Shown here piece by piece: positions 41,271-63,612 of a DNA stretch of 64,000 nt (the first letter of the stretch is position 1; each line of letters opens with the position of its first letter). Under the pieces are notes generated by a model. It saw nothing but the letters and a program-made list of their open reading frames with translations, searched no databases and had not been told where the DNA came from. Made by a program: the position numbers and the translations under genes. Source of the DNA: Streptomyces sp. NBC_00483 (lineage in GTDB: Bacteria > Actinomycetota > Actinomycetes > Streptomycetales > Streptomycetaceae); the NCBI RefSeq assembly GCF_036013745.1, contig NZ_CP107880.1, forward strand, positions 10,173,419 to 10,237,418, given 5' to 3'.

Positions 41271-41939
41271 ATGCAGACCTCTCGTATTCTCCGCACGTCT
41301 CTGGCATCCGCCGTTCTCGGCCTCGGTGCCGTGACCGCCGTCGCCGCCACCGCCGAGGCCGCTCCGGCGTCCACTGGGCCCGCGGCCGCCGCCTCCGCCG
41401 CCCAGCACACTGCCACGGCGGGCCGTACCCAGACCCTGCCGCTCAGCGACGGCAGCACCGCGCATGTCACCCGGCTGGCGAACCACACCTACCAGGCCTG
41501 GATCACGCACAAGGGTGTGCGGATCGCGGCGCTGGACTCCGCGCACAAGACCCAGCGCGTGCACGGCTACACGTATGCGCTCAACCAGGCGAACGGCTTC
41601 GTCGGCGTGGTGCACCCAGGCGGCTGGCACAGCGAGCAGAACGTGCCCCAGCACCCGGCGAAGAAGCACCACAAGAACAACGACCACCAGAACAAGCACC
41701 ACAAGAACAACGACCACCAGAACAAGCACCACAAGAACCAGACCGGCAAGACCCACGACATACGGCTCGCGGACGGCGCCACCGCCCACGTCACCAAGCT
41801 GGCGAACGGCACCTACCAGGCCTGGATCACCCGGCACGGGGTGCGCATCGCCGCCCTGGACGCCGGTCACAGCACGGCCCGCGCCCACGGCCACCACTAC
41901 ACGCTGAACGCCCACACCGGAGCCGTCCACCTGCGCTGA
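41271..41939 (+). CDS. Secreted protein with two copies of a ~58-residue domain and a His/Lys/Asn-rich linker
   Basis: 222 residues with a Sec signal peptide (MQTSRILRTSLASAVLGLGA, cleavage near ATAEAAPA). Two related domains follow: LSDGSTAHVTRLANHTYQAW...VRIAALDSAHKTQ and LADGATAHVTKLANGTYQAW...VRIAALDAGHSTA. They are joined by a linker of repeated KHHKNNDHQN (two full copies and a part). The linker is rich in His and could bind metal. ATG 41271 is chosen because GGAAAGGGG precedes it and the signal peptide begins there; the frame upstream translates the 9-bp repeat array. No family is recognised. Confidence 0.8.
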   Translation: MQTSRILRTSLASAVLGLGAVTAVAATAEAAPASTGPAAAASAAQHTATAGRTQTLPLSDGSTAHVTRLANHTYQAWITHKGVRIAALDSAHKTQRVHGYTYALNQANGFVGVVHPGGWHSEQNVPQHPAKKHHKNNDHQNKHHKNNDHQNKHHKNQTGKTHDIRLADGATAHVTKLANGTYQAWITRHGVRIAALDAGHSTARAHGHHYTLNAHTGAVHLR

Positions 41940-48487: not shown

Positions 48488-48709
48488 AATCTGGTGGGTG
48501 TGTGGCTGGGATCATTCGGGTGCCGGGCGGGCCAAACGGAATCTTCCAACAGGGGTGCTGGGCAGGCAGGTTGAGGCGAAACGGTCCTGATAGCATCCCG
48601 GCGGCGATCTTGATCAACTCATCCAGCGTGCCGACTTGACACGTGCCTGCGGGGTGAGAGCGGGGGTACGGGTCGCCAGTTCCTCCTACCCGTGCCACGA
48701 GAGGTGTCC

Positions 48710-49924
48710 ATGACCCACGCACTTGTGTGGACCCTGGGTGCGATTGCGCTGATATCCGTCGCCGCGAATGTCGCACTCATTACCCGCAACCGAGCGGTGA
48801 CCGCGAAGAGACGCCAGGCCGAGGCCGCGCAGAAACAGGAGCTGAGCCGCGCCACCGCGCAACTCGCGGCCCAACAGGGCGAGTTGGCTGCGGCCCGCTC
48901 CGAGCGGGAGAGCGTCATCGCCGGGGCGCGCGAGGCCGCGGAGGACAGCACGAAGAGCGTCCTCAAGGGCGCGGCGAGCTTCCTGCAGAGCCTTGCGGCC
49001 GAACAGACCGCCCTGCTGGACACCGTGCAGCGCAAGCACGGCGGCCACGAGGTGCTCAGCGACCTCCTCGACGTGGCGCACGCGAACGCCCAGATGGCAC
49101 GCAAGGCACAGGGCATCGCGGTGATGTGCGGTGCGCCGCTGGGCCGCCGCAACCGGCCGGCCAGCGTGTACGACGTCGTGCAGAACGCGAAGGGCCAGAT
49201 CCGCAACTTCCAGCGCGTGTCGATCATGCAGCAGAGTGGTCTCGCCCTCAAGGCGTCCGCGGTCACGCCGGTGGCGCTGGCGGTCGCCGAGCTGCTGGAC
49301 AACGCGGCGAGCTTCTCGCAGCACGACGCTCCGATCGAGGTCACGTTCCAGCGTGTCCAGGGCAACCTCTGCATCGTCATCGACGACGCCGGCGTCAGCA
49401 TGAACGACGAGGACCGGCAGCGGGCGACCGCCCTGCTCTCCGGCGACGAGGCGCCGCGGCTGCAGCAGCTGGGCACGCAGCCCAAGTTCGGTTTCCCCGT
49501 GATCGGCCTGATCGCCCGTCAGCACGGCTTCCGGGTGGACGTCACCGGGGTCTCCCGCTACGGCGGAGTGCGGGCCGTCGTCCGACTGCCCGAGGAGTTG
49601 TGGACCATGGAAGAGGCGACCCCCAAGGCCGCGGCGCCGGCTCCCGCTCCCGCCCCGGCCCCCCACCCTGCGACCGCCCCCGTGCGGCAGGGCCCGGGCC
49701 CGTCCGGGGTCGCTCCCCAGCGCACCGCGCACGGACTGCCCAAGCGTGCTGCCCGGCAGACGCCGACGGCCTCCCCGGCCGCGGGCCGTGCGCCCCGTCC
49801 GGTGGACGAGGCCACGCAGACCGGGCCGCGGGCATCCAGCCGGGGCCTGGGTGCGTTCCAGCGCGGCACCCTTGAAGCCCGCGCCGATGAGTCCCCCCTG
49901 GGCGAAGGGTCTGATGAGCGGTGA
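48710..49924 (+). CDS. cvnA: Conservon CvnA: membrane-bound ATP-binding sensor protein
   Basis: 404 residues, first gene of a conservon. One N-terminal membrane helix (LVWTLGAIALISVAANVALI) is followed by a long Ala/Glu coiled coil (about 30-85) and a histidine-kinase-type ATPase domain: VALAVAELLDNAASFSQHDA (N box), IVIDDAGVSMND (G1) and YGGVRAVVRLPEELW. The phospho-accepting His region is not canonical, as in other CvnA proteins. The C-terminal 110 residues are Pro/Ala-rich and disordered. ATG 48710 follows GAGAGGTG. In known conservons CvnA-D assemble at the membrane in a G-protein-like complex controlling development or antibiotic production. Confidence 0.93.
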   Translation: MTHALVWTLGAIALISVAANVALITRNRAVTAKRRQAEAAQKQELSRATAQLAAQQGELAAARSERESVIAGAREAAEDSTKSVLKGAASFLQSLAAEQTALLDTVQRKHGGHEVLSDLLDVAHANAQMARKAQGIAVMCGAPLGRRNRPASVYDVVQNAKGQIRNFQRVSIMQQSGLALKASAVTPVALAVAELLDNAASFSQHDAPIEVTFQRVQGNLCIVIDDAGVSMNDEDRQRATALLSGDEAPRLQQLGTQPKFGFPVIGLIARQHGFRVDVTGVSRYGGVRAVVRLPEELWTMEEATPKAAAPAPAPAPAPHPATAPVRQGPGPSGVAPQRTAHGLPKRAARQTPTASPAAGRAPRPVDEATQTGPRASSRGLGAFQRGTLEARADESPLGEGSDER

Positions 49925-50760
49925 GCACCTCCGACCTGTCATGGATGCTCGATGACATCGTTAACAACGTGCCCGGCGCGCGCCATGCGGTCCTGCTGTC
50001 CGCCGACGGCCTGCCCCGTGCATCCACCGAGGGCCTCGGCGAGCGGGACCTGGTGACCATCTCCACGGCCATGTCCGGTATCCAGGCCCTGAGCCGGGCC
50101 ACGGCGCCCTTCGTCGGAACCGCGCCGGCCGCGTCCTGGACGCAGACCATCATCGAGTTCCAGCACGGCTGGATCTTCCTGATCGGTGCCGGTCAGGGCG
50201 CCTATCTGGCGGCGGCCGCGGAACCCCATGTGGACATGCAGCAGATCAGTTACCGCATGCACCGTCTGGTGGCCCGGCTGGGACACAACATGACGTCCGC
50301 ACCTCGCGTGGACGGTCCGCAGGCAGGCCGGCGCGGCAGCCCCGAGCCGGCGCCCGGTGAGGAGACGGCCGATGTGCTCAAGGAGCTCGATGTGGCGCTC
50401 GCCGACGTGCCCGGCGCCCGCCACGCGGTGCTGCTGGGCGGCGACGGCCTGCCGCGCGGCGGCACCTCGGGCCTGCCGCGCGATCTCGCCGACCGGATCT
50501 CGGCGGCCATGACCGGCATCCACGCCAACAGCCGGGCGGCCGCGCAGTTCGCGGGCGCGACCGCGGACGTGGCGTGGCAGCAGACGGCCATCGAGTTCCA
50601 GCACGGGTGGATCTTCCTCATCGCCGCCGGCGACGGGGCGCTCCTGGCGGCCTCCGCCGACCACGACTGCAACATCGAGCACCTGACGTCCCAGCTGCAT
50701 GCGGCAGAGCTCAGGATCGCGGCCTCTGCCGGGGCCGGCAGGGTGCCCGGCAATGTCTGA
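49921..50760 (+). CDS. cvnB: Conservon CvnB with two roadblock/LC7 domains
   Basis: 279 residues; ordinary CvnB proteins have about 140 and a single roadblock domain. Here residues 1-125 and about 148-270 are two copies: VPGARHAVLLSADGLPRAS / VPGARHAVLLGGDGLPRGG and IEFQHGWIFLIGAGQGAYL / IEFQHGWIFLIAAGDGALL. Roadblock proteins act as GTPase-activating partners of the CvnD GTPase, normally as dimers, so this may be a built-in dimer. Its GTG overlaps the cvnA stop (GTGA). It overlaps cvnC by eight bases. Confidence 0.93.
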   Translation: MSTSDLSWMLDDIVNNVPGARHAVLLSADGLPRASTEGLGERDLVTISTAMSGIQALSRATAPFVGTAPAASWTQTIIEFQHGWIFLIGAGQGAYLAAAAEPHVDMQQISYRMHRLVARLGHNMTSAPRVDGPQAGRRGSPEPAPGEETADVLKELDVALADVPGARHAVLLGGDGLPRGGTSGLPRDLADRISAAMTGIHANSRAAAQFAGATADVAWQQTAIEFQHGWIFLIAAGDGALLAASADHDCNIEHLTSQLHAAELRIAASAGAGRVPGNV

Positions 50761-51136
50761 GCCCAGCGGTCCGGACCTCGAGCTGACGTCCGACCTCGTC
50801 CCGCTCTTCGTGATCACGAACGGGCGGTCCCTGCCCCCCGAGCACGAATTCGAGCACACCGCGATGGTGACCTCTGCCGACGGGTCCGAGGCCGCCCTGC
50901 GCGCCCTGACACCCGAGGCCCGCAGGGTCATGGAAGTGGTCACCGGCGGAGTCCTGTCCGTCGCCGAGGTCGCCGGCCACACCCGGTTCCCGATCGGCGT
51001 CGTGCGCATCCTGCTGGCCCAACTCGCGGAGGCCGGCCTGCTCGACGTCCGCCAGCCGGTCCCGGCCGCCGAACTGGTGGACATCGACCTCGTCCGTGCT
51101 GTGCGCACCGGCCTGCAGAAGAAATTCGGAGTGTGA
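50753..51136 (+). CDS. cvnC: Conservon CvnC (DUF742)
   Basis: 127 residues of the DUF742 family. LVPLFVITNGRSLPPEHEFE at the start, then a winged-helix-like LTPEARRVMEVVTGGVLSVA and FPIGVVRILLAQLAEAGLLD. ATG 50753 overlaps the cvnB end by eight bases; the longer frame upstream is a shadow of cvnB. It is thought to be part of the membrane complex with CvnA, B and D; the biochemical role is unknown. Confidence 0.93.
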   Translation: MSEPSGPDLELTSDLVPLFVITNGRSLPPEHEFEHTAMVTSADGSEAALRALTPEARRVMEVVTGGVLSVAEVAGHTRFPIGVVRILLAQLAEAGLLDVRQPVPAAELVDIDLVRAVRTGLQKKFGV

Positions 51137-51137
51137 C

Positions 51138-51701
51138 GTGTACCTGGATCCCTCTGTCAGCCAGGCCGTGAAGGTGCTCATCGTGGGCCATTTCGGCGTG
51201 GGGAAAACCACCTGCATCGGCAGTCTCTCGGAGATCAAACCGCTGCGGACCGAAGAGCAGATCACGATGGCCAGTGTGGGGCTCGACGACCTCACCAACA
51301 CACCGAACAAGACGACCACCACCGTGGCCATGGACTTCGGCCGCCTCACCCTCTCCGACAGCCTGGTCCTCTACCTGTTCGGCACGCCCGGCCAGGAGCG
51401 GTTCACCGAAATGTGGGAGGACCTCTCGCGCGGCGCACTGGGCGCGCTCGTCCTGGTCGACCCCGCGCGCATCGACGAGTCCTTCGCCGTCCTCGACCTC
51501 GTCGAGTCCTTCGGTCTCACCTACACGGTCGGTGTGAACTCCTTCGCGGGCGGCACCGAGTACGCCCTCAAGGAGGTGCACGAGGCACTGAACCTCCACC
51601 CCGAGACCCCGATCGTGCGGTGCGACGTACGCGACGAGCGTTCCTCCGCCGAGGCACTGATCACCCTCGTGCAGCACCTCATGACCCAGCTCGCCGCCTA
51701 G
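51138..51701 (+). CDS. cvnD: Conservon CvnD: small Ras-like GTPase
   Basis: 187 residues. GTP-binding motifs: P-loop VGHFGVGKTTCIGSLSE, LYLFGTPGQERFTEMWEDLS (G3, DxxG replaced by GTPG, as in this family), and NSFAGGTEYA in place of NKxD. GTG 51138 lies directly after the cvnC stop. Acts as the switch of the conservon complex, with CvnB as the likely activator. Followed 10 bases later by the first P450 gene, so all share one transcript. Confidence 0.94.
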   Translation: MYLDPSVSQAVKVLIVGHFGVGKTTCIGSLSEIKPLRTEEQITMASVGLDDLTNTPNKTTTTVAMDFGRLTLSDSLVLYLFGTPGQERFTEMWEDLSRGALGALVLVDPARIDESFAVLDLVESFGLTYTVGVNSFAGGTEYALKEVHEALNLHPETPIVRCDVRDERSSAEALITLVQHLMTQLAA

Positions 51702-51711
51702 GAGCCCCTGC

Positions 51712-53142
51712 ATGTCCCAGCCGACCGACCCCCGCCTGATACCGCCCGGCTGCCCCGCGCACACCCAGGGCGGCAACACCCAGCTGTACGGGACCGATTT
51801 CGCGGCCAACCCCGAGGCCTACTACGCGCACCTGCGACAGGCCGGGCCCAGCGCGCCCGTCGACATCGCCCCCGGCGTCGAGGCCGAACTCGTCACCAGC
51901 TACGACGCCGCCCTGCACATCCTGCAGAACCCGGCCACCTTCCCGCGCGACGCGCGCCGCTGGAACGCGCTGAACGAGGGGCGGGTGCCGGCCGACAGCC
52001 CGGCCCTGCCGATGATGGCCTGGCGGCGCAACGCCCTGTTCGCCGACGGTGCCGACCACGCCAAGCTGCGCCAGGCCGTCACCGCTGCCCTGGCCACCGT
52101 GGACGAGCGTGCGCTGATCCGCCAGACCCAGGCCTCCGCCGACTACCTCATCAGCGGCTTCAGCTCGGACCGGCACGGCCGCGCCGAGCTCATGGCCGAG
52201 TACGCCGGCCCCCTGCCCCTGCTGGTCTTCTCCCACCTGTTCGGCTGCCCTCCCGAGATCGGCGACCGGGTCATCACCGGGATCTCCGGCATCTTCGAGG
52301 GCGCCGCCGGCGCGGACCAGATCCTCGGCCAGGCGCTCGCCGAGCTGATCGCGCTCAAGCACCGCCGGCCGGGCGACGACCTCACCACCGAGCTGATCCG
52401 CCAGCACACCCTCCTCACCAGCGACCGGGCCGAGGCCGACGAGGCCGTGCTCCAGCAGCTCGTCACGCTGCTCTCCGGCGGCACCGCGCCGCTCGCCGCG
52501 GCCATCGGCACCAGCGCCGCCCTGTACCTGGGGGAGGACTGGCCCACCGGCCTTCCGGTCGAGGACGCCGTCTCCCAGGCCCTGTGGTCCTACGCGCCGA
52601 TCGCCAACTACGCCGGTCACTACCCGACGGTGGACATCGAACTCGGCGAGCGGAGGCTGCGGGCCGGCGATCCGGTGCTCATCTCGTTCGCCGCGGCCAA
52701 CACGGATCCGCGGCTGACCGAGCACCGGGCCCAGCTCAACTCGAAGGCCCATCTCGCGTTCGGGGCGGGACCCCACGCGTGTCCGGCGAAGGACCCGGCG
52801 CTGCTGATCGCGGTGACGGCGGTCGAGTGCCTGCTCAACCGGCTGCCCGACCTGGAGCTCGACAGGCCCTTCTCGGCGCTCGACTGGGTGCCCTCGCCGT
52901 GGAGCCGCGCGCTGGCCGCGTTGCCCGTGCGCTTCTCCCCACGGGCCGTCTCCACCGCCTCCGCCCCGTACGAGTCCGCCGCCCCGGCGGTGTCCCGGCC
53001 CACGCCCGGCCTCCAGCCGCCCGCGGCCGAGCCGGCCGCCTCCGCTTCCACCGGAGCCGGCGTCGATGACGAGTCCGGCCAGGGCAAAAAGCGCAAGGCG
53101 GGACTGTTCAGCCGCTTCGTGGCATGGACCAGGGGCGAGTGA
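51712..53142 (+). CDS. Conservon cytochrome P450, CYP157-like (no ExxR motif)
   Basis: 476 residues. The haem-thiolate loop is HLAFGAGPHACPAKDPALL, with the axial Cys. In the K helix the usual ExxR is replaced by VSQALWSYAPIA. Loss of ExxR with a Trp at this place is the known peculiarity of the CYP157 family, which is found in Streptomyces conservons beside CYP154. About 70 C-terminal residues after the P450 fold (ending GKKRKAGLFSRFVAWTRGE) are Pro/Ala-rich and then basic, perhaps a membrane or partner anchor. Whether this enzyme oxidises anything is unknown. Confidence 0.9.
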   Translation: MSQPTDPRLIPPGCPAHTQGGNTQLYGTDFAANPEAYYAHLRQAGPSAPVDIAPGVEAELVTSYDAALHILQNPATFPRDARRWNALNEGRVPADSPALPMMAWRRNALFADGADHAKLRQAVTAALATVDERALIRQTQASADYLISGFSSDRHGRAELMAEYAGPLPLLVFSHLFGCPPEIGDRVITGISGIFEGAAGADQILGQALAELIALKHRRPGDDLTTELIRQHTLLTSDRAEADEAVLQQLVTLLSGGTAPLAAAIGTSAALYLGEDWPTGLPVEDAVSQALWSYAPIANYAGHYPTVDIELGERRLRAGDPVLISFAAANTDPRLTEHRAQLNSKAHLAFGAGPHACPAKDPALLIAVTAVECLLNRLPDLELDRPFSALDWVPSPWSRALAALPVRFSPRAVSTASAPYESAAPAVSRPTPGLQPPAAEPAASASTGAGVDDESGQGKKRKAGLFSRFVAWTRGE

Positions 53143-53231
53143 CGCAGGCAACTCCACTTTCCTGCGGTGCCATTGGATACTCAAATGATCTTGTGGGTAT
53201 CCATGGCGGCTGATGCTCGGAAAGGAGCACA

Positions 53232-54482
53232 GTGGGAATCGCCGTACTGCCGCAGGATCTTCGCCGCGCCACCGTCAGAGTCTTCTCGCGCCTGCGCACC
53301 CCCCAGGGGCAGGCAAATCCACTCCCTCACTACGCCGAACTCGCTGCATCAGGACCGGTCAGCCCCGCACCCTGGGGCGGCCACCTGGTCACCGGGTTCG
53401 CCGAGTGCGACCAGGTCCTGCGCGACCGGCAGTGGTGCGAACCCGACCGGCGCTGGCGCGAGCGGCAGGGCCGGGGCACCCGCTGGGCCGCGCCGTCCTC
53501 GCAGGAGATGAGCCACGCCCTGCCCAACCTCAACGGGCCGGAACACGCCCGAATACGCCGGGCGGCCGACGGTTTCGACCGCGCCGCCATCGGCCGTCTC
53601 CTCCCCGTGATCACGACAGCCACCGACCGCCTCCTCGACACATTCCACGAACAACTCCGCCACGGGGAGGCCGACTTCGCAGCCCTGGTCGGCGAGGAGC
53701 TCCCCATCGCCACGGTCGGACACTGGCTGGGTTTACCCCGCGCCGACTGGCCCCGGCTGCGCGAGCTCACCCACGACCAGGTGTTCACCCAGGAACTCCT
53801 GCCGACCGCGAGCCAGCTCGCCCGCTCCGACGCCGCAACCGTGGAACTGCGCACGTACTTCACCGACCTCGTCCGCGCTCGCCGCGCCCGCCCGGGAGAC
53901 GACCCCGTCTCGCAGTGGATCCGCACCTGGGACACCCTCGAAACCGACCGCGACCAGGCCGACCACCAGGTCTACCACCTGGCCCGCTTCGTCCTGCTGG
54001 CCGCGCTGGAGACCACCGCGACCCTGCTGTCCCAAGCGGTCCTCCACCTCGTCGAACACCCCCTGCACTGGGACGCGGTCGCCGCCGACCCCGAACTCGT
54101 CCCGGGCGCCGTGGAGGAGAGCCTGCGCTACGACCCACCCACCCACGTCATCAGCCGCGTCGCCTCCCACGACATGCGCCTGGCCGGCCGCCACATCCGC
54201 GAGGGCGAGATGGCCCACCTCCTGATCGGCGCCGCCCACCACGACCCGCACCGGCACGCCGACCCCGCCACCTACAACCCGCACCGAAACCCCGGGGGCC
54301 ACCTCGCCTTCAGCGGCGGCGTCCACTACTGCCTCGGCGCCCCCCTGGTCCGCCTGGAAGCACAGACCCTCATCACCCAACTCACCCGCCGCATCCCCCG
54401 CCCCACCCTCGTACGCCCGCCCACCTGGGCGCCCCGCGTCGCCTTCCGCCGCCTCCTGAACCTGGACCTCACCCTCGCATGA
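53232..54482 (+). CDS. Conservon cytochrome P450, CYP154-like (contains a TTA codon)
   Basis: 416 residues with normal P450 marks: oxygen-binding I helix around FVLLAALETTATLLSQ, ExxR in VEESLRYDPPTHV, and haem loop HLAFSGGVHYCLGAPLVRLE. CYP154 members oxidise steroids, macrolide-like or aromatic compounds. GTG 53232 follows AAAGGAG. Codon 168 (53733-53735) is TTA, needing the bldA tRNA, so the enzyme is probably made late in growth. The ATG of the next gene overlaps its end by four bases. Confidence 0.93.
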   Translation: MGIAVLPQDLRRATVRVFSRLRTPQGQANPLPHYAELAASGPVSPAPWGGHLVTGFAECDQVLRDRQWCEPDRRWRERQGRGTRWAAPSSQEMSHALPNLNGPEHARIRRAADGFDRAAIGRLLPVITTATDRLLDTFHEQLRHGEADFAALVGEELPIATVGHWLGLPRADWPRLRELTHDQVFTQELLPTASQLARSDAATVELRTYFTDLVRARRARPGDDPVSQWIRTWDTLETDRDQADHQVYHLARFVLLAALETTATLLSQAVLHLVEHPLHWDAVAADPELVPGAVEESLRYDPPTHVISRVASHDMRLAGRHIREGEMAHLLIGAAHHDPHRHADPATYNPHRNPGGHLAFSGGVHYCLGAPLVRLEAQTLITQLTRRIPRPTLVRPPTWAPRVAFRRLLNLDLTLA

Positions 54483-55690: not shown

Positions 55691-55896
55691 GAAGAGCGGC
55701 CTGTCGCTGCGGCGACTGCGGGTGTCGGGCGATCTTGCGGGTCTGCTGCGTCTACTCGCGATCGAGGCGCTCGGCCGGCGAACCGTGTGAGACATGCAAC
55801 GAACACCCATGATCAATTTCCGCCGCGTCCGGCCCGCCGCCTAGCGTCCCCCGGACACATCGACAGCCGGGGGCTTATCGAGCGGAAAGACAGCAC
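55691..55896. promoter_or_regulatory. Promoter region of the small membrane-protein cassette
   Basis: About 200 bases between the Imm49 remnant and the first cassette gene. An AT-richer stretch (55790-55825) is a likely promoter. No operator recognised. Confidence 0.35.
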
Positions 55897-56253
55897 GTGA
55901 TGACCCCGGCCCACAGCGGCAGAGGCTCCGGGAGCCTCATATCCGCCCTGCTGCCCGACGGGGCAGAGGGGCCGTTCCTGGTGCTCCTCTTCGCCGCCCT
56001 GATCGGGCCGGCCTTCTACGGCCGGTACAAGCAGCGCCGCGACGGCACGCACCTGCCGCGTGTGAACGCCGCGGTGCAGCGGGGCGCGGCCCGGGTCACC
56101 CTCTGCGGCGCCGTCCTTGCGGAAATCCTCGGCCTGATCGGGATCTTCGCCTTCAAAGCCACGTGGTGGGCAGGCGTCGCGCCGCTCGTCCTCTGCGCCT
56201 TCGGGATCGTCCTGGTCCGATGGGCACGCGCGCACGCCCGGGGACACAGGTGA
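55897..56253 (+). CDS. Small membrane protein 1 of coupled cassette
   Basis: 118 residues (GTG 55897 or ATG 55900; GGAAAG precedes). Three hydrophobic segments: about 26-42 (PFLVLLFAALIGPAFYG), 67-86 (VTLCGAVLAEILGLIGIFAF) and 90-110. Between the first two is a basic loop with RYKQRRDGTHLPRVNAAVQR; the end is Arg/His-rich. Not recognised. It heads a run of eight overlapping genes for small membrane proteins and its stop overlaps the next start (GTGA). Confidence 0.8.
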   Translation: MMTPAHSGRGSGSLISALLPDGAEGPFLVLLFAALIGPAFYGRYKQRRDGTHLPRVNAAVQRGAARVTLCGAVLAEILGLIGIFAFKATWWAGVAPLVLCAFGIVLVRWARAHARGHR

Positions 56254-56447
56254 CGCGCTCGGACAAGTGGCTGGTCGTCGCCCTGGTCGTGCTGATCATG
56301 GCCACCATCTGCAACGTCGTCACGAGCCGCACCGGCTGGGGCCGCGTGCGCGAGCTGGCCATCGGCGTCTACGTCATCAGCTTTCTGGCCTGGCACCTCC
56401 GCAGCGACCGGCGCAAGCGGCGCGCAGGGAAGAGGAAGCCGAAGTGA
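56250..56447 (+). CDS. Small membrane protein 2 of coupled cassette
   Basis: 65 residues from GTG 56250. Two helices (WLVVALVVLIMATICNVV, about 7-24; ELAIGVYVISFLAWHL, about 39-54) around a polar loop with TGW, then a strongly basic tail SDRRKRRAGKRKPK. Starts and ends in overlaps with its neighbours. Unknown function. Confidence 0.78.
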   Translation: MTRSDKWLVVALVVLIMATICNVVTSRTGWGRVRELAIGVYVISFLAWHLRSDRRKRRAGKRKPK

Positions 56448-56689
56448 AGCTCCACATGGACTGGACGGACCGGGTCCTGCTCATCGCACTGACCATCCTC
56501 GGCATTGCCAACGCCACGGACTCGGACACCTCGAACGGGTGGCGGCTGGGGGGCACCTTCATGCCCGCCGCCCTCGCCTGCAGCGTCATCCGCGCTGCCC
56601 GCCGCAAGCGGCGCAGGCAGCGTGCCGAGCGCCAGGCCCTGCTGACGCGCCTCGACCGCCTCATGCGCCGCGAGGTGAAGCGCCGATGA
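56444..56689 (+). CDS. Small membrane protein 3 of coupled cassette
   Basis: 81 residues from GTG 56444, with GAGGAAG in the end of the previous gene as ribosome site. First helix VLLIALTILGIANA, polar loop with NGW, second helix FMPAALACSVI, then a long basic helix (RAARRKRRRQRAERQALLTR). Same plan as proteins 2, 5, 7 and 8: helix, W-containing loop, helix, basic tail. Confidence 0.78.
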   Translation: MKLHMDWTDRVLLIALTILGIANATDSDTSNGWRLGGTFMPAALACSVIRAARRKRRRQRAERQALLTRLDRLMRREVKRR

Positions 56690-56901
56690 AGAAGCACCTG
56701 AAGAAGAACCTCCGCGCCGTGCCGGGCGGTGCTGCGGTCAGCGCGGCGGGCGGGGCGAGCGGCGCCGCCTGGGGCGGATCCGGCGGCGCCGTCGTGCCGT
56801 GGTGGCTGTGTGCCCTCGTAGGAATCGTTCTCCTCCCACTGATCGTGATCATCGTCAAGAACGTCCGTGACATGGTCCGGCTGGCGAAGGCGAACCGATG
56901 A
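56686..56901 (+). CDS. Small membrane protein 4 of coupled cassette (VKN-RD-LAKANR type)
   Basis: 71 residues. Basic start MKKHLKKNLRAVPGG, a Gly/Ala/Ser-rich stretch, then one membrane helix beginning PWWLCALVGIVLLPLIVII and the C-terminal motif VKNVRDMVRLAKANR. Clear paralogue of protein 6, which ends VKNIRDALSLAKANR. ATGA overlaps at both ends. The Gly-rich N-terminal half resembles some small secreted or bacteriocin-like peptides, but no family is recognised. Confidence 0.8.
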   Translation: MKKHLKKNLRAVPGGAAVSAAGGASGAAWGGSGGAVVPWWLCALVGIVLLPLIVIIVKNVRDMVRLAKANR

Positions 56902-57107
56902 AGTGGATCTCGCCCAGCGGGCCGCCGCGCAGCCGGAGGTTCCATGCCGTCCAGATCGGGCTCGTCGTGGGCTGCTGCCTCGCGGCCGGCGTCGAGGCCT
57001 CCGTATGGCGCTACTCGGTGCAGGCGGCCTGCACCGGCGCGCTGATTGCCTCGTCCGTCTGGAACTGGTGGCGCATGCGGCGCACATGGAAGAAGGGCCC
57101 CAAGTGA
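56898..57107 (+). CDS. Small membrane protein 5 of coupled cassette
   Basis: 69 residues. A basic N-terminus (SGPPRSRRFH), two hydrophobic segments (VQIGLVVGCCLAAGVEA; AACTGALIASSVWNWW) and a basic end RMRRTWKKGPK. Start overlaps protein 4 by four bases, end overlaps protein 6. Not recognised. Confidence 0.78.
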   Translation: MKWISPSGPPRSRRFHAVQIGLVVGCCLAAGVEASVWRYSVQAACTGALIASSVWNWWRMRRTWKKGPK

Positions 57108-57325
57108 TCAAGCGCCTGAAGAAGCTCGGTGCGATGCCCGCCACCACTGGCGGCGTCGCCGCTGGCGGGGTCGGCGGCAGCACCTGGAGCGGATTCGGTT
57201 CCGATGTCGCCGTGGTCATGCCGTGGTGGCTGTGGGCCCTCTTGGGGGCCGTCCTCTGCGCGCTGTTCGTGGCCACCGTCAAGAACATCCGTGACGCACT
57301 CAGTCTGGCAAAGGCGAACCGATGA
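57104..57325 (+). CDS. Small membrane protein 6 of coupled cassette (paralogue of 4)
   Basis: 73 residues from GTG 57104. VIKRLKKLGAMPATTGG, Gly/Ser-rich stretch, helix starting MPWWLWALLGAVLCALFVAT and the ending VKNIRDALSLAKANR, nearly the same as protein 4. The DNA of the last 30 bases is also almost identical in both copies, including the overlapping start of the gene behind (AACCGATGAAG). So genes 4-5 and 6-7 look like a duplicated two-gene unit. Confidence 0.8.
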   Translation: MIKRLKKLGAMPATTGGVAAGGVGGSTWSGFGSDVAVVMPWWLWALLGAVLCALFVATVKNIRDALSLAKANR

Positions 57326-57744
57326 AGCCGCGTGCCAAACGGCGGCTCAAGTTCGTGGGTGTGGTTGCGGACCCGCCGAAGCCGCTCACCGTCCTGGAGA
57401 TCGTGGTGAACGTTGCCACGGTCGTCATGGTCTTCGGCGCCCTCGGGTTCATCACCGGCAAGTGGGACATGGCGATCGGCGCGGGCGTCAGCGGCACGGG
57501 GGTCCACCTCCTGTTCCAGTGGTGGTGGCGCCGTTCCGACCGGCCGGAGCACAACGAGGGCGAAGATGGGGAAGCCCACGAGGCTCGTCCTGTACGCCTT
57601 GGTCGTGTTCGCCGTTCTGGGCGCCATCGGAGCCGTCACGGGAAAGTGGAACGCCGTCATCAACGGCGGGTGCATTTTTCTCGGCTCCGTGGGCTGGAAC
57701 TACTTCCACGCCCGGCGCATCGAGCAGCGCGGGAACGACGATGA
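57322..57744 (+). CDS. Small membrane protein 7 of coupled cassette, with extended overlapping tail
   Basis: 140 residues as read. The first ~75 are a believable member of the cassette: basic start, helix VVNVATVVMVFGALGFI, TGKWDMAIGAG, second helix, FQWWWRRSD. The remaining 60 residues are Arg/His-rich and lie in a different frame over the whole of gene 8, so they look like noise. A lost stop codon near 57565, where gene 8 starts, would explain this. Alternatively the long overlap is real. Confidence 0.65.
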   Translation: MKPRAKRRLKFVGVVADPPKPLTVLEIVVNVATVVMVFGALGFITGKWDMAIGAGVSGTGVHLLFQWWWRRSDRPEHNEGEDGEAHEARPVRLGRVRRSGRHRSRHGKVERRHQRRVHFSRLRGLELLPRPAHRAARERR

Positions 57745-57751
57745 TCATTAA
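57566..57751 (+). CDS. Small membrane protein 8 of coupled cassette
   Basis: 61 residues. Helix LVLYALVVFAVLGAIGA, loop VTGKWNAVI, helix NGGCIFLGSVGWNYF, then HARRIEQRGNDDDH. It shares the TGKW loop and general plan with protein 7, so the two are probably paralogues. ATG 57566 has GAGGGCGAAG before it. Its stop overlaps the start of the ninth reading frame. Confidence 0.72.
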   Translation: MGKPTRLVLYALVVFAVLGAIGAVTGKWNAVINGGCIFLGSVGWNYFHARRIEQRGNDDDH

Positions 57752-58026
57752 CGTCCTGGTCCGGATCATGTACGCGCTCATCCTCGGCGGCCTTCGGTGC
57801 CATCACCGTCGCCGTCTGCGCTGTCTGGAACCTGCGCCGGGCCACGGTGTACCGCGACAAACGGCTTGGCAGCTCCGGCACCCGTATCAGCCGGTTCCTG
57901 GCCACGCGTACCGGCCTCGCCGTCATGCTCGTAGTGCTGGCGCTGGCCATGGCGCTCTTCATGCTCGGCTGGGGCAATGTCCCACGCGGGACGCCTCCGG
58001 GAAGTGCGGCATGCCCAGCCACATGA
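57741..58026 (+). pseudogene. Ninth membrane-protein gene of the cassette, frameshifted
   Basis: ATG 57741 opens MIINVLVRIMYALILGG; from about 57790 the believable protein continues in the +1 frame: AFGAITVAVCAVWNLRRATV, then RFLATRTGLAVMLVVLALAM and ALFMLGWGN, to TGA 58024-58026. The original frame gives His/Arg-rich noise. One base change in the GGCGGCC stretch would restore a three-helix protein of about 95 residues. It may be a true pseudogene or a sequencing error. Confidence 0.65.
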
Positions 58027-58097
58027 ACTGGTAGCCAAGCAGGGAGCCTGGCCCCCCTGTCCGGGAATCGCGACCATTACGGCCGCTCCCGAAGTTT

Positions 58098-58979: not shown

Positions 58980-59326
58980 ACAAAGCGTCGTGGCAGCACA
59001 ACGGAGCTACCAGCAGATGACACCCCTCAGCCCCGGATGGCGTCAGCCGGTGAGGCGGATAACCCGCAGGGTTTCCTGAGAATCCAGGAAACCAAGCACC
59101 CGGCCCGCGGCCAGCGGGGCGCTCTTGCAGGCAGGTGCTCGCCGTGAACTCACCCCTCCACAACATGCGGCCGCCAGCGGAACACAGGATGTGGACCGCT
59201 CGCCGGCGCCGGAACAGCCGGGCAGCGTGGGCGTGACGGACCATCATGTACGCACCCGCGGAGTCGATGATCCCGGTCAGCTCGTCCTGGTCCACACCGC
59301 CACACAGGCGCGCCACCGCGGCGAGG
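58980..59326. other. Intergenic region without recognised gene
   Basis: About 350 bases between the convergent GNAT and TetR genes. A small hairpin, GGGTTTCCTGAGAATCCAGGAAACC (59071-59094), could serve as a terminator. Frames across the area show no homology. Confidence 0.4.
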
Positions 59327-59956
59327 CTATCCCGACAACCTTCGCCCGTCGGCCACAGCCCCGCGGCTCAAGAAGGCGTCAACGACACAGACGACGTCGG
59401 CGCGCTCGAGCCGTGCGCCTGCCACGAGCCGCCGGAAGAACAGGGGCCCGAGAAGCTGGGCGACGGCGAATTCCACGTCAGTGGCCGTCGACAGCTCTCC
59501 TCGGGCCACCGCATCCTCGATGACAGCAGCGGTCGTCCGGCTGCCCTCGCGGTACAAGTCCCTCTTCAGCGCCGCGAAGGCGGGACTGCTGTCGGCGCGC
59601 TCGATCACCACTCGCATGATCCGCTCGGTCGCCGGGTCGGTCAATTGGCCGCGGGCCAGGTCGAGTTCGGCCAGCAGATCCTCCCGCAGATCCCCCTTCG
59701 GGATGCTGTGACTGCGGGCCATCTGCCCGGCGAGCGCATCACGCAGGAGATCGGTGACGTCGGGCCAGTGACGGTACAGGGTGCTACGCCCCACACCGCT
59801 GCGCGAGGAAACGTTCACGTGCGTGATGGCCGGCAAGCCGCCTTCCTGCAGCAGCTCGCGTACCGCCGTCAACGCCGCCGATCTGCTCCGCGTAATACGC
59901 GGATCGACCCGTTGCGTTCCTGCGGTCTGCGTCGGGGGCGCCGGCATGGGACTCAC
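59327..59956 (-). CDS. TetR-family transcriptional regulator
   Basis: 209 residues. The HTH reads ITHVNVSSRSGVGRSTLYRH with the usual WPDVTDLLRDAL after it; the C-terminal helical domain is TetR_C-like (ERIMRVVIERADSSPAFAAL). GTG 59956 follows GGGAGAC; the longer frame to 59989 overlaps the operator. It is divergent from the membrane protein at 60071 with a 31-bp inverted repeat between, so it very probably represses that gene and itself. Confidence 0.9.
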   Translation of the reverse strand: MSPMPAPPTQTAGTQRVDPRITRSRSAALTAVRELLQEGGLPAITHVNVSSRSGVGRSTLYRHWPDVTDLLRDALAGQMARSHSIPKGDLREDLLAELDLARGQLTDPATERIMRVVIERADSSPAFAALKRDLYREGSRTTAAVIEDAVARGELSTATDVEFAVAQLLGPLFFRRLVAGARLERADVVCVVDAFLSRGAVADGRRLSG

Positions 59957-60002
59957 ACATGTCTCCCTTCTCCGCCCCCAGTCTGGCACGCGATGCCCCG
60001 CC

Positions 60003-60033
60003 CCTACTATGGGACAAGTTGTTTCACAGTAGG
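60003..60033. promoter_or_regulatory. TetR operator
   Basis: CCTACTATGGGACAA-G-TTGTTTCACAGTAGG: 12 of 15 arm positions pair. It lies 47 bases upstream of the TetR start and 38 bases before the membrane-protein start. Confidence 0.75.
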
Positions 60034-60070
60034 GAGGGTCGGCCGATCCCCCCCCGGCCCGAGGAGAGCC

Positions 60071-60475
60071 ATGGCCGTCGTCAGTCCTGGACGCGTTCTG
60101 TTGTCACTGACCTCCATCAGCACCATGTGCGGCGCCTACATCGCCGACTGGAACGAAACACACATCCACAACCCCAACTGGCCGCCACACGCGAAATTCC
60201 ACAACGCCCAGACCATGAGCACCGGCGCCGCGCTCGGCGCCATCGGGCTGTGGGCACTGTGGGGCCGCGGAGCCGACGCCTCCGGCGAGCGACTGAAACT
60301 GGCGACCGGTGCCGCCTCGCTGTACTGGATCACCCAGATGTCGGCCATCGCCTACCCCGGAACCGCCTTCATGGACCCGCCGAAGAAGGGCGCCCCGCAA
60401 GCAGTACTCGCCGGGGCCACACTCACCCTCAACGGCCTGGCCTTCGCCCTGGAACGCCGACGGCTGCGCCGGTGA
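60071..60475 (+). CDS. Membrane protein of unknown function (TetR-controlled)
   Basis: 134 residues with four hydrophobic segments (LLSLTSISTMCGAYIAD, TGAALGAIGLWALWG, LATGAASLYWITQMSAIAY, AVLAGATLTLNGLAFAL). A conserved-looking WNETHIHNPNWPPHAKFHNA follows the first helix, with Trp, His and Asn that could bind a ligand or metal. ATG 60071 follows GAGGAGAG. Resembles small DUF membrane proteins paired with TetR regulators in actinomycetes. Function unknown; an efflux or stress role is a guess. Confidence 0.83.
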   Translation: MAVVSPGRVLLSLTSISTMCGAYIADWNETHIHNPNWPPHAKFHNAQTMSTGAALGAIGLWALWGRGADASGERLKLATGAASLYWITQMSAIAYPGTAFMDPPKKGAPQAVLAGATLTLNGLAFALERRRLRR

Positions 60476-60951: not shown

Positions 60952-63612
60952 TTACGCCCAGGTGATGCCCAACTCCCTTAGTGCGCCCAGCTGCTCGGCG
61001 TCGAGTTTGTCGCGCCGGGTCTTGGTGTTGGTGATCCATACGCCCAGTTTCACAATCACTGGCTCCGCTTCGCCGTCGACGGCGATCGGTTCGCTGTGTC
61101 CGCGCGGCACCGGCCGGTGGGCGCCTTCCCGCTCGACCCACTGCGTGAGGGCTGTCAGGCCTCGTTGGAATGCCTGCTGCGCTTTGCTCGGTCCCTTCGT
61201 CGTACGAGTGGCTGTCGGGGCGGGCTGGATGCCCAGCTTGGTCAGCCGCTCCTGCTGCTCGGGAAGGAGCCGTGCCCAGTTGCCCGGCTGCTTCTGCTGC
61301 TTCAGCCATTTGCCGATGTCGTCGCTGTCCATGAGTACGCCGGGTGCGATGTCGGGGAGCCGGCCGTCGGGTTCGTCGGCGGCGAGGTCGGCCAGGACGC
61401 GGTAGTGCCGCTGCCAGTCCAGCGGCCACGGGCAGTTCCAGTCCGGGTCGATCTCCGCTAGCTGCGCCGCACGTACGGCGGCGCGCACCGGGGCCTTGCC
61501 CAGGCCGTTCTTCTGCCCCTTCCGGCGGAGGTTGGCGATGTGCTGTCCGATGGGCACCATCGCCTCGCTCTCGCCCCATACTGCGTCCTGGCGGGGTGCG
61601 AGGTGTCCGGTGGCCCGCCGGTAGGAGCGGAGCGCGGCGAGCTTGTTCTCCCAGGCTTCCTCGCCCGGCTCCCACACCATCCCGGCTTCCGGGGCGTCCA
61701 GCAGGGTCTTGCGCCGCTCCTCCAGTTCCCCGGCCCGTAGTGCTTTGCGCTGCTGGTGCACCCACCTGCCGAGGGGGAAGTCCTTGGTCACCCCCACTTC
61801 GAGCTCCACGTCGTAGGACACGGCGTGGACGCCGGTGATCTCGTTCTCGGCCCGCCAGCACAGCAGGGCTTGGTAGCCCTCCAGCCACACCAGCGACTCG
61901 GGCCGGTAGACCCGAGTGCGCAGGAACGCGGCGATCGTGGCCGCGTCTCTGGGGGAGGAGAAGCGGAGCAGCACGGACTCGGCAGTGGCGTTGCTGTCGT
62001 CCTGCTCCTGGTCGGCGCCGTCATCTTCGCCGCCGGCCCCGACGATCCGGCCGTTCTTGTCCCGCTGGATGTGGACCGTGCGCTTTCCGCTGGTGAGGGC
62101 GCGGGAGGCGAGCTGCTCGACGAGTCGTTCATCATGCGAGCGCAGACCCTGGAGCACAGCTACGAGCGGGCGGAACGAGGCGCTGGCGATCATGTCGGTG
62201 GGGTTTTCGCCGGGCTTCAGGAACACGGGCACGATGATCCGTGCGACCTTGGTGGAGCCGTCTTTGTTGAGGCGGAGTGCGCGGCCGATGTTCTGCACGA
62301 TCTCGACCTGGGAGCCACGGGTGTCGGCGAAGCAGACGGCTTCCACGCCTCGTTTGCCGGTGATGTCGACGCCTTCTCCGAGTACGCGACAGCTGGCGAG
62401 GAACGCGCGGTGCACGCGCCGGTTGTTGGCGTCGATGCCCTCTGCGAACTGGCGCAGAGCTTCCCGGCGTTCGGTGACGTGGTGGTCGCCGCACAGCCAT
62501 GCCGACCAGACGCGCTCTGGTGGTACGTGGCGGCCGGCGTCGAGTTCGTAGAAGTCGGCGTCGATCGATGATGCGGGGAGCCGGTCCGCGGCCACCAGGC
62601 CGTCCTCGGAGGTGTCGTTGGCGTACAGCTCCGCGGCGGTCTCCGGCAGCTTCTCCGCGAAGGCCGCTGCTTCCTCCACCTTCTGATGGAAGGTCATCAC
62701 CGTACGGAGGTTCCACTTCGCGGCGTGTTCCAGGAGTGCGGTCTGGAGCACGGCCAGGCGCCGGCCGCGCTGCGCCTCTTCGGATTCCCCGAGGACGGGG
62801 GAGGGGTCGCGGATCTCGAGGACGTCGATCTCGAATCCGGCGAGGATTTCGCGTTCGATCGCCTCCGAGAGTCCCAGCTCGGCCAGCCATGGTCCGTAGA
62901 TCTCGGAGTCCTGGCCCATGGACGCGATCTCCGCCTCCTGGCCGTGCGGGCCCTTCTGCGGGCGGGGCGCGGCGAGGATGCGGGGGGTTGCGGTGAGGTA
63001 GAGCCGGTAGTCGGCGGGGACGCGGGCGTTGTCGTGGATCGCCGCCCATGGCTTGCCAAGATCGCCTGCGGTTGAGTGCGCCTCGTCGACGATGGCGAGC
63101 GAAAAACCGTCCATCCGCTGTCCGTACAGCTGCTCCCCGCCCGCGAGAGCGGCCTCCAGCGGCCCGCACACCTTCCGCTGACCCGCAGGGTCGTCGAAGT
63201 CCTCGCGGTCCACCAGCGAGGCGTACGTGGCGAACACGACGACGGGTCCGTGTCCGGCCCACAGGGCGAGCTGGATCGGGTTGGTGGTGGTGCGCACCCC
63301 CAACGCGCCCAGGACCGGGTCGTTCTCCAGCGAGCACACCGTGACCATCGGCGCGGTGTGGCCCACCAGACGCCAGGCCTCGACGGTCTGCGCGAGCAGG
63401 TCCAGGGTCGGCACCATGACCAGGATCCGACCGCCCGCGAACGACTCCAGCGCGCATGCGGCGGCCGTGATCGTCTTGCCCGAGCCGGTCGCGGACACGA
63501 TCGTGCCCCGGGCACCCTGCGGGGACACAGGTGCCCTTTCAGGGAACCCCACCCACCGGCGAAACGCGGAGCGTTGAGCTACCTGATGCTCCTTGAGCCG
63601 AATCGCTGACAT
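60952..63612 (-). CDS. ttrA: Telomeric helicase-like protein TtrA
   Basis: 886 residues. A superfamily 2 helicase: IVSATGSGKTITAAA (Walker A, about residue 40), ILVMVPTLDLL, VDEAHST (DEAH-like box), LYLTATPRILA, and motif VI VQNIGRALRLNKDGSTK. The C-terminal 300 residues contain several helicase-associated repeats (ALRSYRRATGHLAPRQDAVW, LTQWVEREGAHRPVPRGHSE). This is the architecture of the helicase genes found at the ends of Streptomyces chromosomes and plasmids, whose loss affects conjugal transfer. It is the last gene before the telomere and points inward. Start ATG 63612; palindromes at 63629 and 63695 lie in its promoter. Confidence 0.92.
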   Translation of the reverse strand: MSAIRLKEHQVAQRSAFRRWVGFPERAPVSPQGARGTIVSATGSGKTITAAACALESFAGGRILVMVPTLDLLAQTVEAWRLVGHTAPMVTVCSLENDPVLGALGVRTTTNPIQLALWAGHGPVVVFATYASLVDREDFDDPAGQRKVCGPLEAALAGGEQLYGQRMDGFSLAIVDEAHSTAGDLGKPWAAIHDNARVPADYRLYLTATPRILAAPRPQKGPHGQEAEIASMGQDSEIYGPWLAELGLSEAIEREILAGFEIDVLEIRDPSPVLGESEEAQRGRRLAVLQTALLEHAAKWNLRTVMTFHQKVEEAAAFAEKLPETAAELYANDTSEDGLVAADRLPASSIDADFYELDAGRHVPPERVWSAWLCGDHHVTERREALRQFAEGIDANNRRVHRAFLASCRVLGEGVDITGKRGVEAVCFADTRGSQVEIVQNIGRALRLNKDGSTKVARIIVPVFLKPGENPTDMIASASFRPLVAVLQGLRSHDERLVEQLASRALTSGKRTVHIQRDKNGRIVGAGGEDDGADQEQDDSNATAESVLLRFSSPRDAATIAAFLRTRVYRPESLVWLEGYQALLCWRAENEITGVHAVSYDVELEVGVTKDFPLGRWVHQQRKALRAGELEERRKTLLDAPEAGMVWEPGEEAWENKLAALRSYRRATGHLAPRQDAVWGESEAMVPIGQHIANLRRKGQKNGLGKAPVRAAVRAAQLAEIDPDWNCPWPLDWQRHYRVLADLAADEPDGRLPDIAPGVLMDSDDIGKWLKQQKQPGNWARLLPEQQERLTKLGIQPAPTATRTTKGPSKAQQAFQRGLTALTQWVEREGAHRPVPRGHSEPIAVDGEAEPVIVKLGVWITNTKTRRDKLDAEQLGALRELGITWA

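What the first reader, a model, noticed from the sequence alone, without database searches (positions are those of the whole stretch)
55897..58026. Uncharacterised cassette of eight to nine translationally coupled small membrane-protein genes
In 2.1 kb every gene starts inside or at the stop of the one before (GTGA, GTGA, ATGA, ATGA, GTGA, ATGA...). Products are 60-120 residues with one to three helices. Most follow one plan: helix, short loop with TGW/NGW/TGKW, helix, basic tail; two belong to a second type ending VKN-RD-LAKANR. Such strict coupling suggests subunits of one membrane assembly made in fixed ratio. Possibilities include a pore, a transfer (Spd-like spreading) complex, a defence or a competition device; the sequence does not decide. 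I know no described system with this layout.
Basis: partly seen in the sequence, partly recalled or inferred. Interest (0 to 1): 0.85.

Follow-up and report, generated by a model that had tools for sequence, protein, structure and literature searches.

The report
Mosaic operons of tiny membrane proteins
The run of eight to nine tiny, tightly linked membrane-protein genes is real, and it is one slightly decayed copy of an unnamed, patchily distributed Streptomyces gene cassette whose middle genes vary between a fixed start signal and a fixed last gene, and which at one locus sits between the repeats left by a mobile element.

Summary
In detail: six consecutive junctions overlap by exactly four bases, gene 8 starts inside gene 7 and gene 9 inside gene 8. 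(1) The window is the end of a linear Streptomyces chromosome; the cassette lies in a ~35 kb terminal inverted repeat. (2) It belongs to a multi-copy family (own genome, NBC_01016, KL109B): a ~100-bp conserved leader, 4-9 small membrane genes from about 15 unnamed families, then the same last gene, ending HMNW. (3) The window copy is damaged: its last gene is frameshifted and gene 7 lost its stop; intact relatives exist. (4) Cassettes move and are shuffled: one locus is a 2.4-2.6 kb islet between 17-bp repeats at a tRNA-Ser 3' end, empty in 21 of 29 other genomes checked, with an integrase remnant in KL109B; two strains ~98% identical around it carry different interiors. No Pfam, NCBIfam, PHROG or PADLOC family is recognised; Spd membership is not supported. 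Function is inferred: most likely a variable membrane assembly used in conflict with mobile DNA, phages or competitors.

The parts
55784..55886 (+). Conserved leader found upstream of the cassettes; carries ATTTCC-N20-TAGCGT (promoter-like, by eye; exact in 5 of the 7 leaders aligned) and an inverted repeat
   Evidence: pairwise 70-97% identity over ~87 bp among six loci. The sigma-70 scan found no promoter-like site, so promoter function is inferred.
55848..55873 (+). Inverted repeat CCCCCGG / CCGGGGG in the leader (operator, or hairpin at the start of the mRNA; role inferred)
   Evidence: Read; arms kept in all 7 leaders aligned, with one G-U change (L028) and a 10- instead of 12-base loop in L031
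55897..56253 (+). p1, 118 aa, three predicted helices
   Evidence: the four relatives found are Streptomyces; frameshifted in the NBC_01016 terminal copy
56250..56447 (+). p2, 65 aa, small membrane protein with TGW loop and basic tail
56444..56689 (+). p3, 81 aa, related to p2, NGW loop, basic tail
56686..56901 (+). p4, 71 aa, Gly-rich N-terminal half, one helix, VKN-RD-LAKANR end; paralogue of p6
56898..57107 (+). p5, 69 aa
   Evidence: the related gene in L028 is interrupted by a frameshift
57104..57325 (+). p6, 73 aa, paralogue of p4
57322..57744 (+). p7, TGKW loop; 83 aa in NBC_01016, here read on to 140 aa because the stop is lost
57566..57751 (+). p8, 61 aa, TGKW loop, related to p7
57741..58034 (+). 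p9, the last gene of every cassette (111-117 aa when intact, two to three predicted helices, ends in a Cys-containing tail and HMNW); broken here by a ~50-bp deletion plus a second small frame-shifting deletion
   Evidence: intact relatives exist

Best explanation
The cassette is a member of a mobile, mosaic operon family found so far only in some Streptomyces. Shown by sequence: a fixed leader, a fixed last gene, and between them a variable choice, in largely conserved order, of short membrane-protein genes (1-3 predicted helices) that overlap so that translation can pass from one to the next. Also shown: one locus is an islet with attachment-site repeats at a tRNA-Ser 3' end, and its leader plus interior has been replaced between closely related strains. 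Inferred: one promoter in the leader makes one mRNA; coupled translation makes the proteins together; they assemble in the membrane with the last protein as the common subunit and the others as exchangeable parts. Inferred and least certain (about 0.3 on its own): the exchange and fast protein change reflect conflict, most likely exclusion of incoming phages or conjugative elements. The window copy is a decaying copy in the chromosome end and may do nothing by itself.
For: Multi-copy family and common leader/last gene; overlapping junctions, 36 of 36 scored (with the limits given under the observation check); content differs while order is largely kept. Mobility: the flanks of the tRNA-Ser islet abut with a 16-18 bp overlap in 21 of the 29 best-matching loci, from 29 genomes (from the 121-genome search); 17-bp direct repeats in L031 and L034; two cassettes in tandem plus a C-terminal integrase remnant beside tRNA-Ser in KL109B. 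Exchange: L031 and L034 are 98-100% identical per 50 bp from 8710 to ~9009, about 80% over the leader, mostly unrelated inside, and 96-100% again from ~10046 within the last gene. Fast change: dN/dS 0.30-2.47 in 16 chosen cassette comparisons, 7 of 16 at 0.94 or more, against 0.04-0.43 in 9 flank-gene comparisons; over the whole the p2/p3 type gives 0.94-2.62 in 21 of 21 pairs.
Against: No expression or phenotype data. No PADLOC family recognised. No neighbour gene is common to the cassettes: flanks are shared only by the same locus in different strains and by two pairs of loci with a common downstream stretch (L028 with L011/L027, L032/L035 with L033). NG86 dN/dS on 38-115 codons with third-position GC near 0.9 understates synonymous change, so values near or above 1 may only mean weak constraint. 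Attachment repeats were seen at one locus only, the left copy in KL109B is imperfect, and no clean empty site was seen for the 4.48 Mb locus. Several copies are broken, which also fits weak selection. The model of p9 was poor (pLDDT 58.6), so no fold supports an assembly.
Confidence: 0.42

Rival explanations
1. Orphan spreading (Spd-like) modules: sets of small membrane proteins left on the chromosome by integrative conjugative elements, which still work with TraB from other elements at septa to pass DNA along the mycelium.
For: Spd genes are described as diverse, 3-6 per plasmid for pock formation, many unique to one plasmid, and Spd proteins as assembling with TraB (passages of PMC4170104 and PMC5133688 seen). 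In pIJ101, spdB and the next small gene also overlap by 4 bases. The islet uses a tRNA attachment site as integrative elements do, and in the window's genome an AICE with a TraB (NF041214, 932 bits, cut-off 800) sits in the next tRNA. TraB in a recipient permitted spreading of a traB-deleted plasmid.
Against: The AICE TraB and Rep queries match only L034's own AICE among the 11 stretches searched, and that AICE is absent from NBC_01016 at the same place. This test sees near relatives only: the pIJ101 Tra query did not even find the AICE TraB. No plasmid match for four cassette proteins. Best SpdB similarity is no better than local shuffles (6 and 55 of 100 reach it).
Confidence: 0.2
2. A competition device: the small basic membrane proteins form a pore or act as multi-part membrane-active peptides against other strains, with some genes giving self-protection.
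For: Multi-copy, exchangeable, fast-changing, strain-limited genes and basic tails.
Against: No secretion, processing or transport gene is common to the cassette flanks (no common flank at all; Pfam of ten window neighbours). By eye the coupled genes do not split into toxin and immunity pairs.
Confidence: 0.12
3. A physiological membrane complex (envelope stress, ion or gas handling) that varies by drift.
For: Conserved leader suggests regulated expression; the last gene is under clearer constraint (dN/dS 0.45-0.78 in 25 of 28 pairs; two close pairs 0.13 and 0.91, one undefined).
Against: Not found in nearly all sampled Streptomyces; interiors exchanged between closely related strains.
Confidence: 0.1
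4. A selfish or decaying repeat family without present function for the host.
For: The window copy, the NBC_01016 terminal copy, the 8.27 Mb copy and its NBC_01016 counterpart, the first KL109B cassette and p5 of L028 carry lesions.
Against: Intact open chains of 5-7 genes remain at 4.48 and 5.16 Mb in the window's genome and at the matching NBC_01016 loci; coding-type third-position GC in p1-p8.
Confidence: 0.14

Closest known systems
Spd (spreading) gene clusters of Streptomyces plasmids and AICEs
   Same: Small, diverse, tightly packed genes, at least some for membrane proteins; 4-base overlap of spdB and the next gene in pIJ101; link to integrative elements
   Different: No tra/rep neighbours found in the islets, no significant sequence similarity detected, several chromosomal copies, a fixed leader and fixed last gene
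CIMEs (cis-mobilizable elements) and other integrase-less tRNA islets (passages of PMC5704250)
   Same: Direct repeats from a tRNA 3' end, no integrase recognised in the L031/L034 islet, accretion in tandem and an integrase remnant in KL109B
   Different: CIME describes how an element moves, not what its cargo does; the cargo here is a shuffled operon also found at loci without visible repeats
Phage superinfection-exclusion and holin-type small membrane proteins (recalled)
   Same: Size, number of helices, basic tails
   Different: No PHROG match better than E 0.011, no tblastn match of p6 or of the last protein in 50,697 phage records and none of the last protein in viral contigs; many coupled genes rather than one

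Membership tests
Spd spreading cluster | Small membrane proteins encoded by overlapping genes | tested here: met
   pIJ101 compared
Spd spreading cluster | Linked to traB/tra and rep on a plasmid or AICE | tested here: not met
   AICE TraB and Rep match only L034's own AICE among 11 stretches; that AICE is in the neighbouring tRNA-Arg site and absent from L031. Near relatives only: pIJ101 Tra did not find the AICE TraB
Spd spreading cluster | Sequence similarity to known Spd proteins | tested here: not met
   pIJ101 and one AICE; other plasmids' Spd not compared one by one; four proteins against plasmid records
Spd spreading cluster | Needed for pock formation or spread | not testable with these tools
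   Needs mating assays
CIME / integrase-less integrative islet | attL and attR direct repeats from a specific target, empty in relatives | tested here: met
   tRNA-Ser locus only. Not seen at the 4.48 Mb locus nor by direct-repeat scan of L028, L032 and the window region
CIME / integrase-less integrative islet | No integration or transfer genes of its own | tested here: met
   no match to the AICE's integrase, TraB or Rep in L031; the islet's 276-aa gene has no Pfam hit; a C-terminal integrase remnant only in L033
CIME / integrase-less integrative islet | Can be mobilised by another element | not testable with these tools
   -
Known anti-phage defence system (PADLOC-DB 2.0.0) | Match to a system model | tested here: not met
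   0 families for 9 of 9 proteins at E up to 0.1
Phage protein family (PHROGs) | Significant match | tested here: not met
   best E 0.011 over 10 frames; no phage tblastn match for p6 and the last protein

The most novel reading that the evidence does not exclude
A new class of combinatorial operon: a fixed regulatory leader and a fixed last membrane protein frame an exchangeable set of translationally coupled small membrane proteins, so that recombination between the two fixed ends builds new variants of one membrane machine used to tell apart or shut out other strains, phages or conjugative elements.
Probability: 0.28. Interest if true: 0.88.

Novelty: categorically new. Interest (0 to 1): 0.68.

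Why it matters
If the reading holds, some Streptomyces carry a recombination-diversified membrane assembly with unnamed subunits, and the fixed-ends, variable-middle design makes its function testable by swapping or deleting whole cassettes. Even on the cautious reading it defines about 15 uncharacterised protein families, a search handle (leader plus HMNW gene) and a natural experiment: one locus with different contents in closely related strains.

Tried and rejected
Six of 199 genomes matched p6; the five that are not the window's own (E 1e-5 to 1e-3) were dropped as false because in all five a ~700-aa phospholipase-like ORF covers the place in another frame. The one weak extra genome each (G196; G369), and the 14 genomes with short leader matches, were taken as chance without further examination. 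Weak Pfam/NCBIfam hits (for example YnfA, PhoR, DUF2909, GtrA, PspM, holin_5) are all below the curated cut-offs and rejected. Low tblastn E-values of cassette proteins against pIJ101 and the AICE were judged noise: tiny databases, no low-complexity or composition correction, mostly Gly/Arg-rich pieces; the one SpdB match in the right frame failed local shuffling. The single-linkage group joining p1 with p2/p3 is an artefact of the frameshifted, fused p1-p2 frame of L029. A structure of the last protein was too poor to search. A search for an empty site at the 4.48 Mb locus found the two flanks at unrelated places in other genomes. Paper searches: (listings); passages were seen in PMC4170104, PMC5704250, PMC9513070 and PMC5133688; a term search in PMC7205883 found nothing. 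None of these showed a system of this layout, but the library lacks most subscription papers.
Full report
WHERE IT IS. The window is G000:C1:10173419-10237418, the right end of a 10,237,418-base Streptomyces chromosome. Window 29111-64000 is repeated, inverted, at the left end at 99.89% identity or more, so the cassette lies in a terminal inverted repeat of about 35 kb, 6-8 kb from the tip, and exists at both ends.

THE OBSERVATION. Eight small frames p1-p8 plus the start of a ninth follow one another on the + strand. p1/p2 to p6/p7 overlap by exactly 4 bases; p8 starts inside p7; p9 starts 11 bases inside p8. p1-p7 form a chain of 7 ORFs of at least 60 aa linked this way (9 if an upstream ORF and the damaged p9 frame are counted); the longest chains in 30 dinucleotide shuffles of the window are 3-6. 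No Pfam, NCBIfam or PHROG family is recognised: all hits are weak, and below curated cut-offs where such exist; no PADLOC match. p4 and p6 are paralogues (53%), as are p7 and p8 (41% over 29 residues).

A FAMILY, NOT A SINGLETON. p6 led to a second cassette in the same chromosome at 8.27 Mb. Its last gene is intact and showed that the frame at the window's 3' end is a broken version of a 116-aa protein ending in HMNW. Sixteen proteins of this last-gene family were found among 5.8 billion; those with a source name are all Streptomyces. Four relatives of p1 and 23 of the p7/p8 group were found; again the named ones are Streptomyces. In the window's genome the last gene, whole or in pieces, lies at both ends and at 4.48, 5.16 and 8.27 Mb, with a scrap near 0.49 Mb. 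In the one scan of GTDB species genomes, 7 loci in 2 genomes were found: NBC_01016 (6 loci) and KL109B (1 locus, with two cassettes). In sampled Streptomyces it is rare: last gene in 2 of 392 genomes, own included and the other a weak 42-residue match; 1 of 150 relatives, the own genome; p7 profile in 2 of 392, own included and the other weak. These searches score only part of the first-look candidates, so absence is not proof.

A FIXED LEADER. About 100 bases before the first gene (window 55784-55886) recur before the cassettes of L028, L029/L030, L031, L032, L034, L035 and both cassettes of L033. Pairwise identity over ~87 bp among six loci is 70-97%, against 22-45% for the interiors compared globally. 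In the window's genome the leader occurs at the two ends, 5.16 and 4.48 Mb; the 8.27 Mb copy lacks it, its p6 being joined in frame to the end of a transposase-like ORF (IS630-type by recall). In 392 Streptomyces genomes the matches outside the own genome (14 genomes) were 24-56 base pieces at E of 1e-4 or weaker; that search scored two candidates per genome and returned only two of the four known leaders of the own genome, so it is a weak test. The leader holds an ATTTCC-N20-TAGCGT arrangement (exact in 5 of 7 aligned) and CCCCCGG / CCGGGGG arms (7 of 7, one with a G-U change); promoter and operator or hairpin roles are inferred, and the sigma-70 scan was negative.

VARIABLE MIDDLE, FIXED END. 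Gene lists (L035 left out of the grouping as a twin of L032) fall into 14 groups, one of which is a false merger, so about 15 families. All 36 junctions scored in six non-redundant cassettes overlap, 26 by exactly 4 bases (starts hand-chosen, see the observation check). Intact cassettes run from 5 genes (L031) to 10 (L028, one of them interrupted). By eye the family order is largely kept: first-gene types, the GYIPxDL type, the KPRTRIT type, the p2/p3 type, p5 and p4/p6, p7/p8, and the HMNW gene last in every one; an exception is KL109B, where the KPRTRIT-like gene follows the p2/p3 type.

MOBILITY. L031 (NBC_01016), L034 (own, 5.16 Mb) and L033 (KL109B) share one locus between tRNA-Arg(ACG) and tRNA-Ser(GCT). 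In the 29 best-matching other genomes of the 121 searched, 21 loci show the two flanks abutting with a 16-18 bp overlap, 6 show a gap of 43-162 bp, and 2 fetched pieces held neither flank. L031 and L034 carry a 17-bp direct repeat at both edges, one copy being the 3' end of tRNA-Ser; in KL109B the left copy is imperfect. The islet is ~2.4 kb (L031) or ~2.6 kb (L034). KL109B has two cassettes in tandem and, beside tRNA-Ser, a C-terminal piece of a tyrosine integrase (PF00589, E 4e-11); the neighbouring AICE's integrase finds nothing in L031. This is what the literature calls a CIME (passages of PMC5704250). In the window's genome an AICE with TraB and integrase occupies the neighbouring tRNA-Arg; it is a separate insertion.

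EXCHANGE. L031 and L034 are 98-100% identical per 50 bp from L031 8710 to ~9009 (the block before, next to the AICE junction, is 82%), about 80% over the leader, not alignable in the interior except for short pieces, and 96-100% again from ~10046, about 45 bases into the last gene; the following 10 kb are 98.3% identical. The tract leader + interior + first bases of the last gene has therefore been replaced as a block, most simply since these strains split (dS 0.025-0.068 in two flank genes, 0.029 in the last gene). By contrast L032/L035 carry the same interior, as do L027/L011 and L029/window.

SELECTION. In 16 chosen cassette comparisons dN/dS is 0.30-2.47 (7 of 16 at 0.94 or more); in 9 flank-gene comparisons it is 0.04-0.43. 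In the full set the range is 0.13-2.62; all 21 p2/p3-type pairs are 0.94 or more, while the last gene gives 0.45-0.78 in 25 of 28 pairs (others 0.13, 0.91, undefined). Short genes and GC-rich third positions make the absolute values unreliable; the contrast with flank genes is the point.

THE WINDOW COPY. Against NBC_01016 it has a ~50-bp and a second small deletion in the last gene, and a lost p7 stop; NBC_01016 in turn has a frameshift in p1. So neither terminal copy seems complete, while the 4.48 and 5.16 Mb copies have open chains throughout.

HOW IT MOST LIKELY WORKS. Shown: the anatomy, the family, the islet at one locus and the exchange. Inferred from anatomy: co-translation, membrane insertion and assembly around the last protein. 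Inferred from rarity, exchange and fast change: a role in conflict, with exclusion of phages or conjugative elements slightly ahead of an Spd-like transfer role. No result here decides between them.

Noticed in passing
window 59037-60081: This ~1.04 kb with a TetR-type gene is absent from the otherwise 97-98% identical terminal region of NBC_01016 (L029/L030), where the flanks meet with a 12-base overlap: a recent insertion or deletion.
   Followed up: no
window 60955-63612 (-): An 886-aa helicase (ResIII/DEAD plus four helicase-associated stretches) is the last large gene found before the chromosome tip; it recalls the telomere-adjacent TtrA-type helicases (recalled, not tested).
   Followed up: no
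window 48692-54479: A conservon-like set: sensor-kinase ATPase, roadblock protein, GTP-binding protein, then two cytochrome P450-like genes (the first P450 only by weak NCBIfam hits; the name conservon is recalled).
   Followed up: no
L034:11551-19901: The window's genome carries an AICE (TraB, integrase, excisionase-like gene) in tRNA-Arg(ACG), with a ~67-bp overlap of the flanks, right next to the cassette islet; NBC_01016 lacks it there.
   Followed up: partly
L011:9205-9621: At 8.27 Mb the cassette is cut by a transposase-like end fused in frame to p6; NBC_01016 (L027) has the matching truncated copy.
   Followed up: partly
window 41441-41865: Two ~103-bp repeats (82% identical) about 324 bases apart within the terminal repeat.
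   Followed up: no
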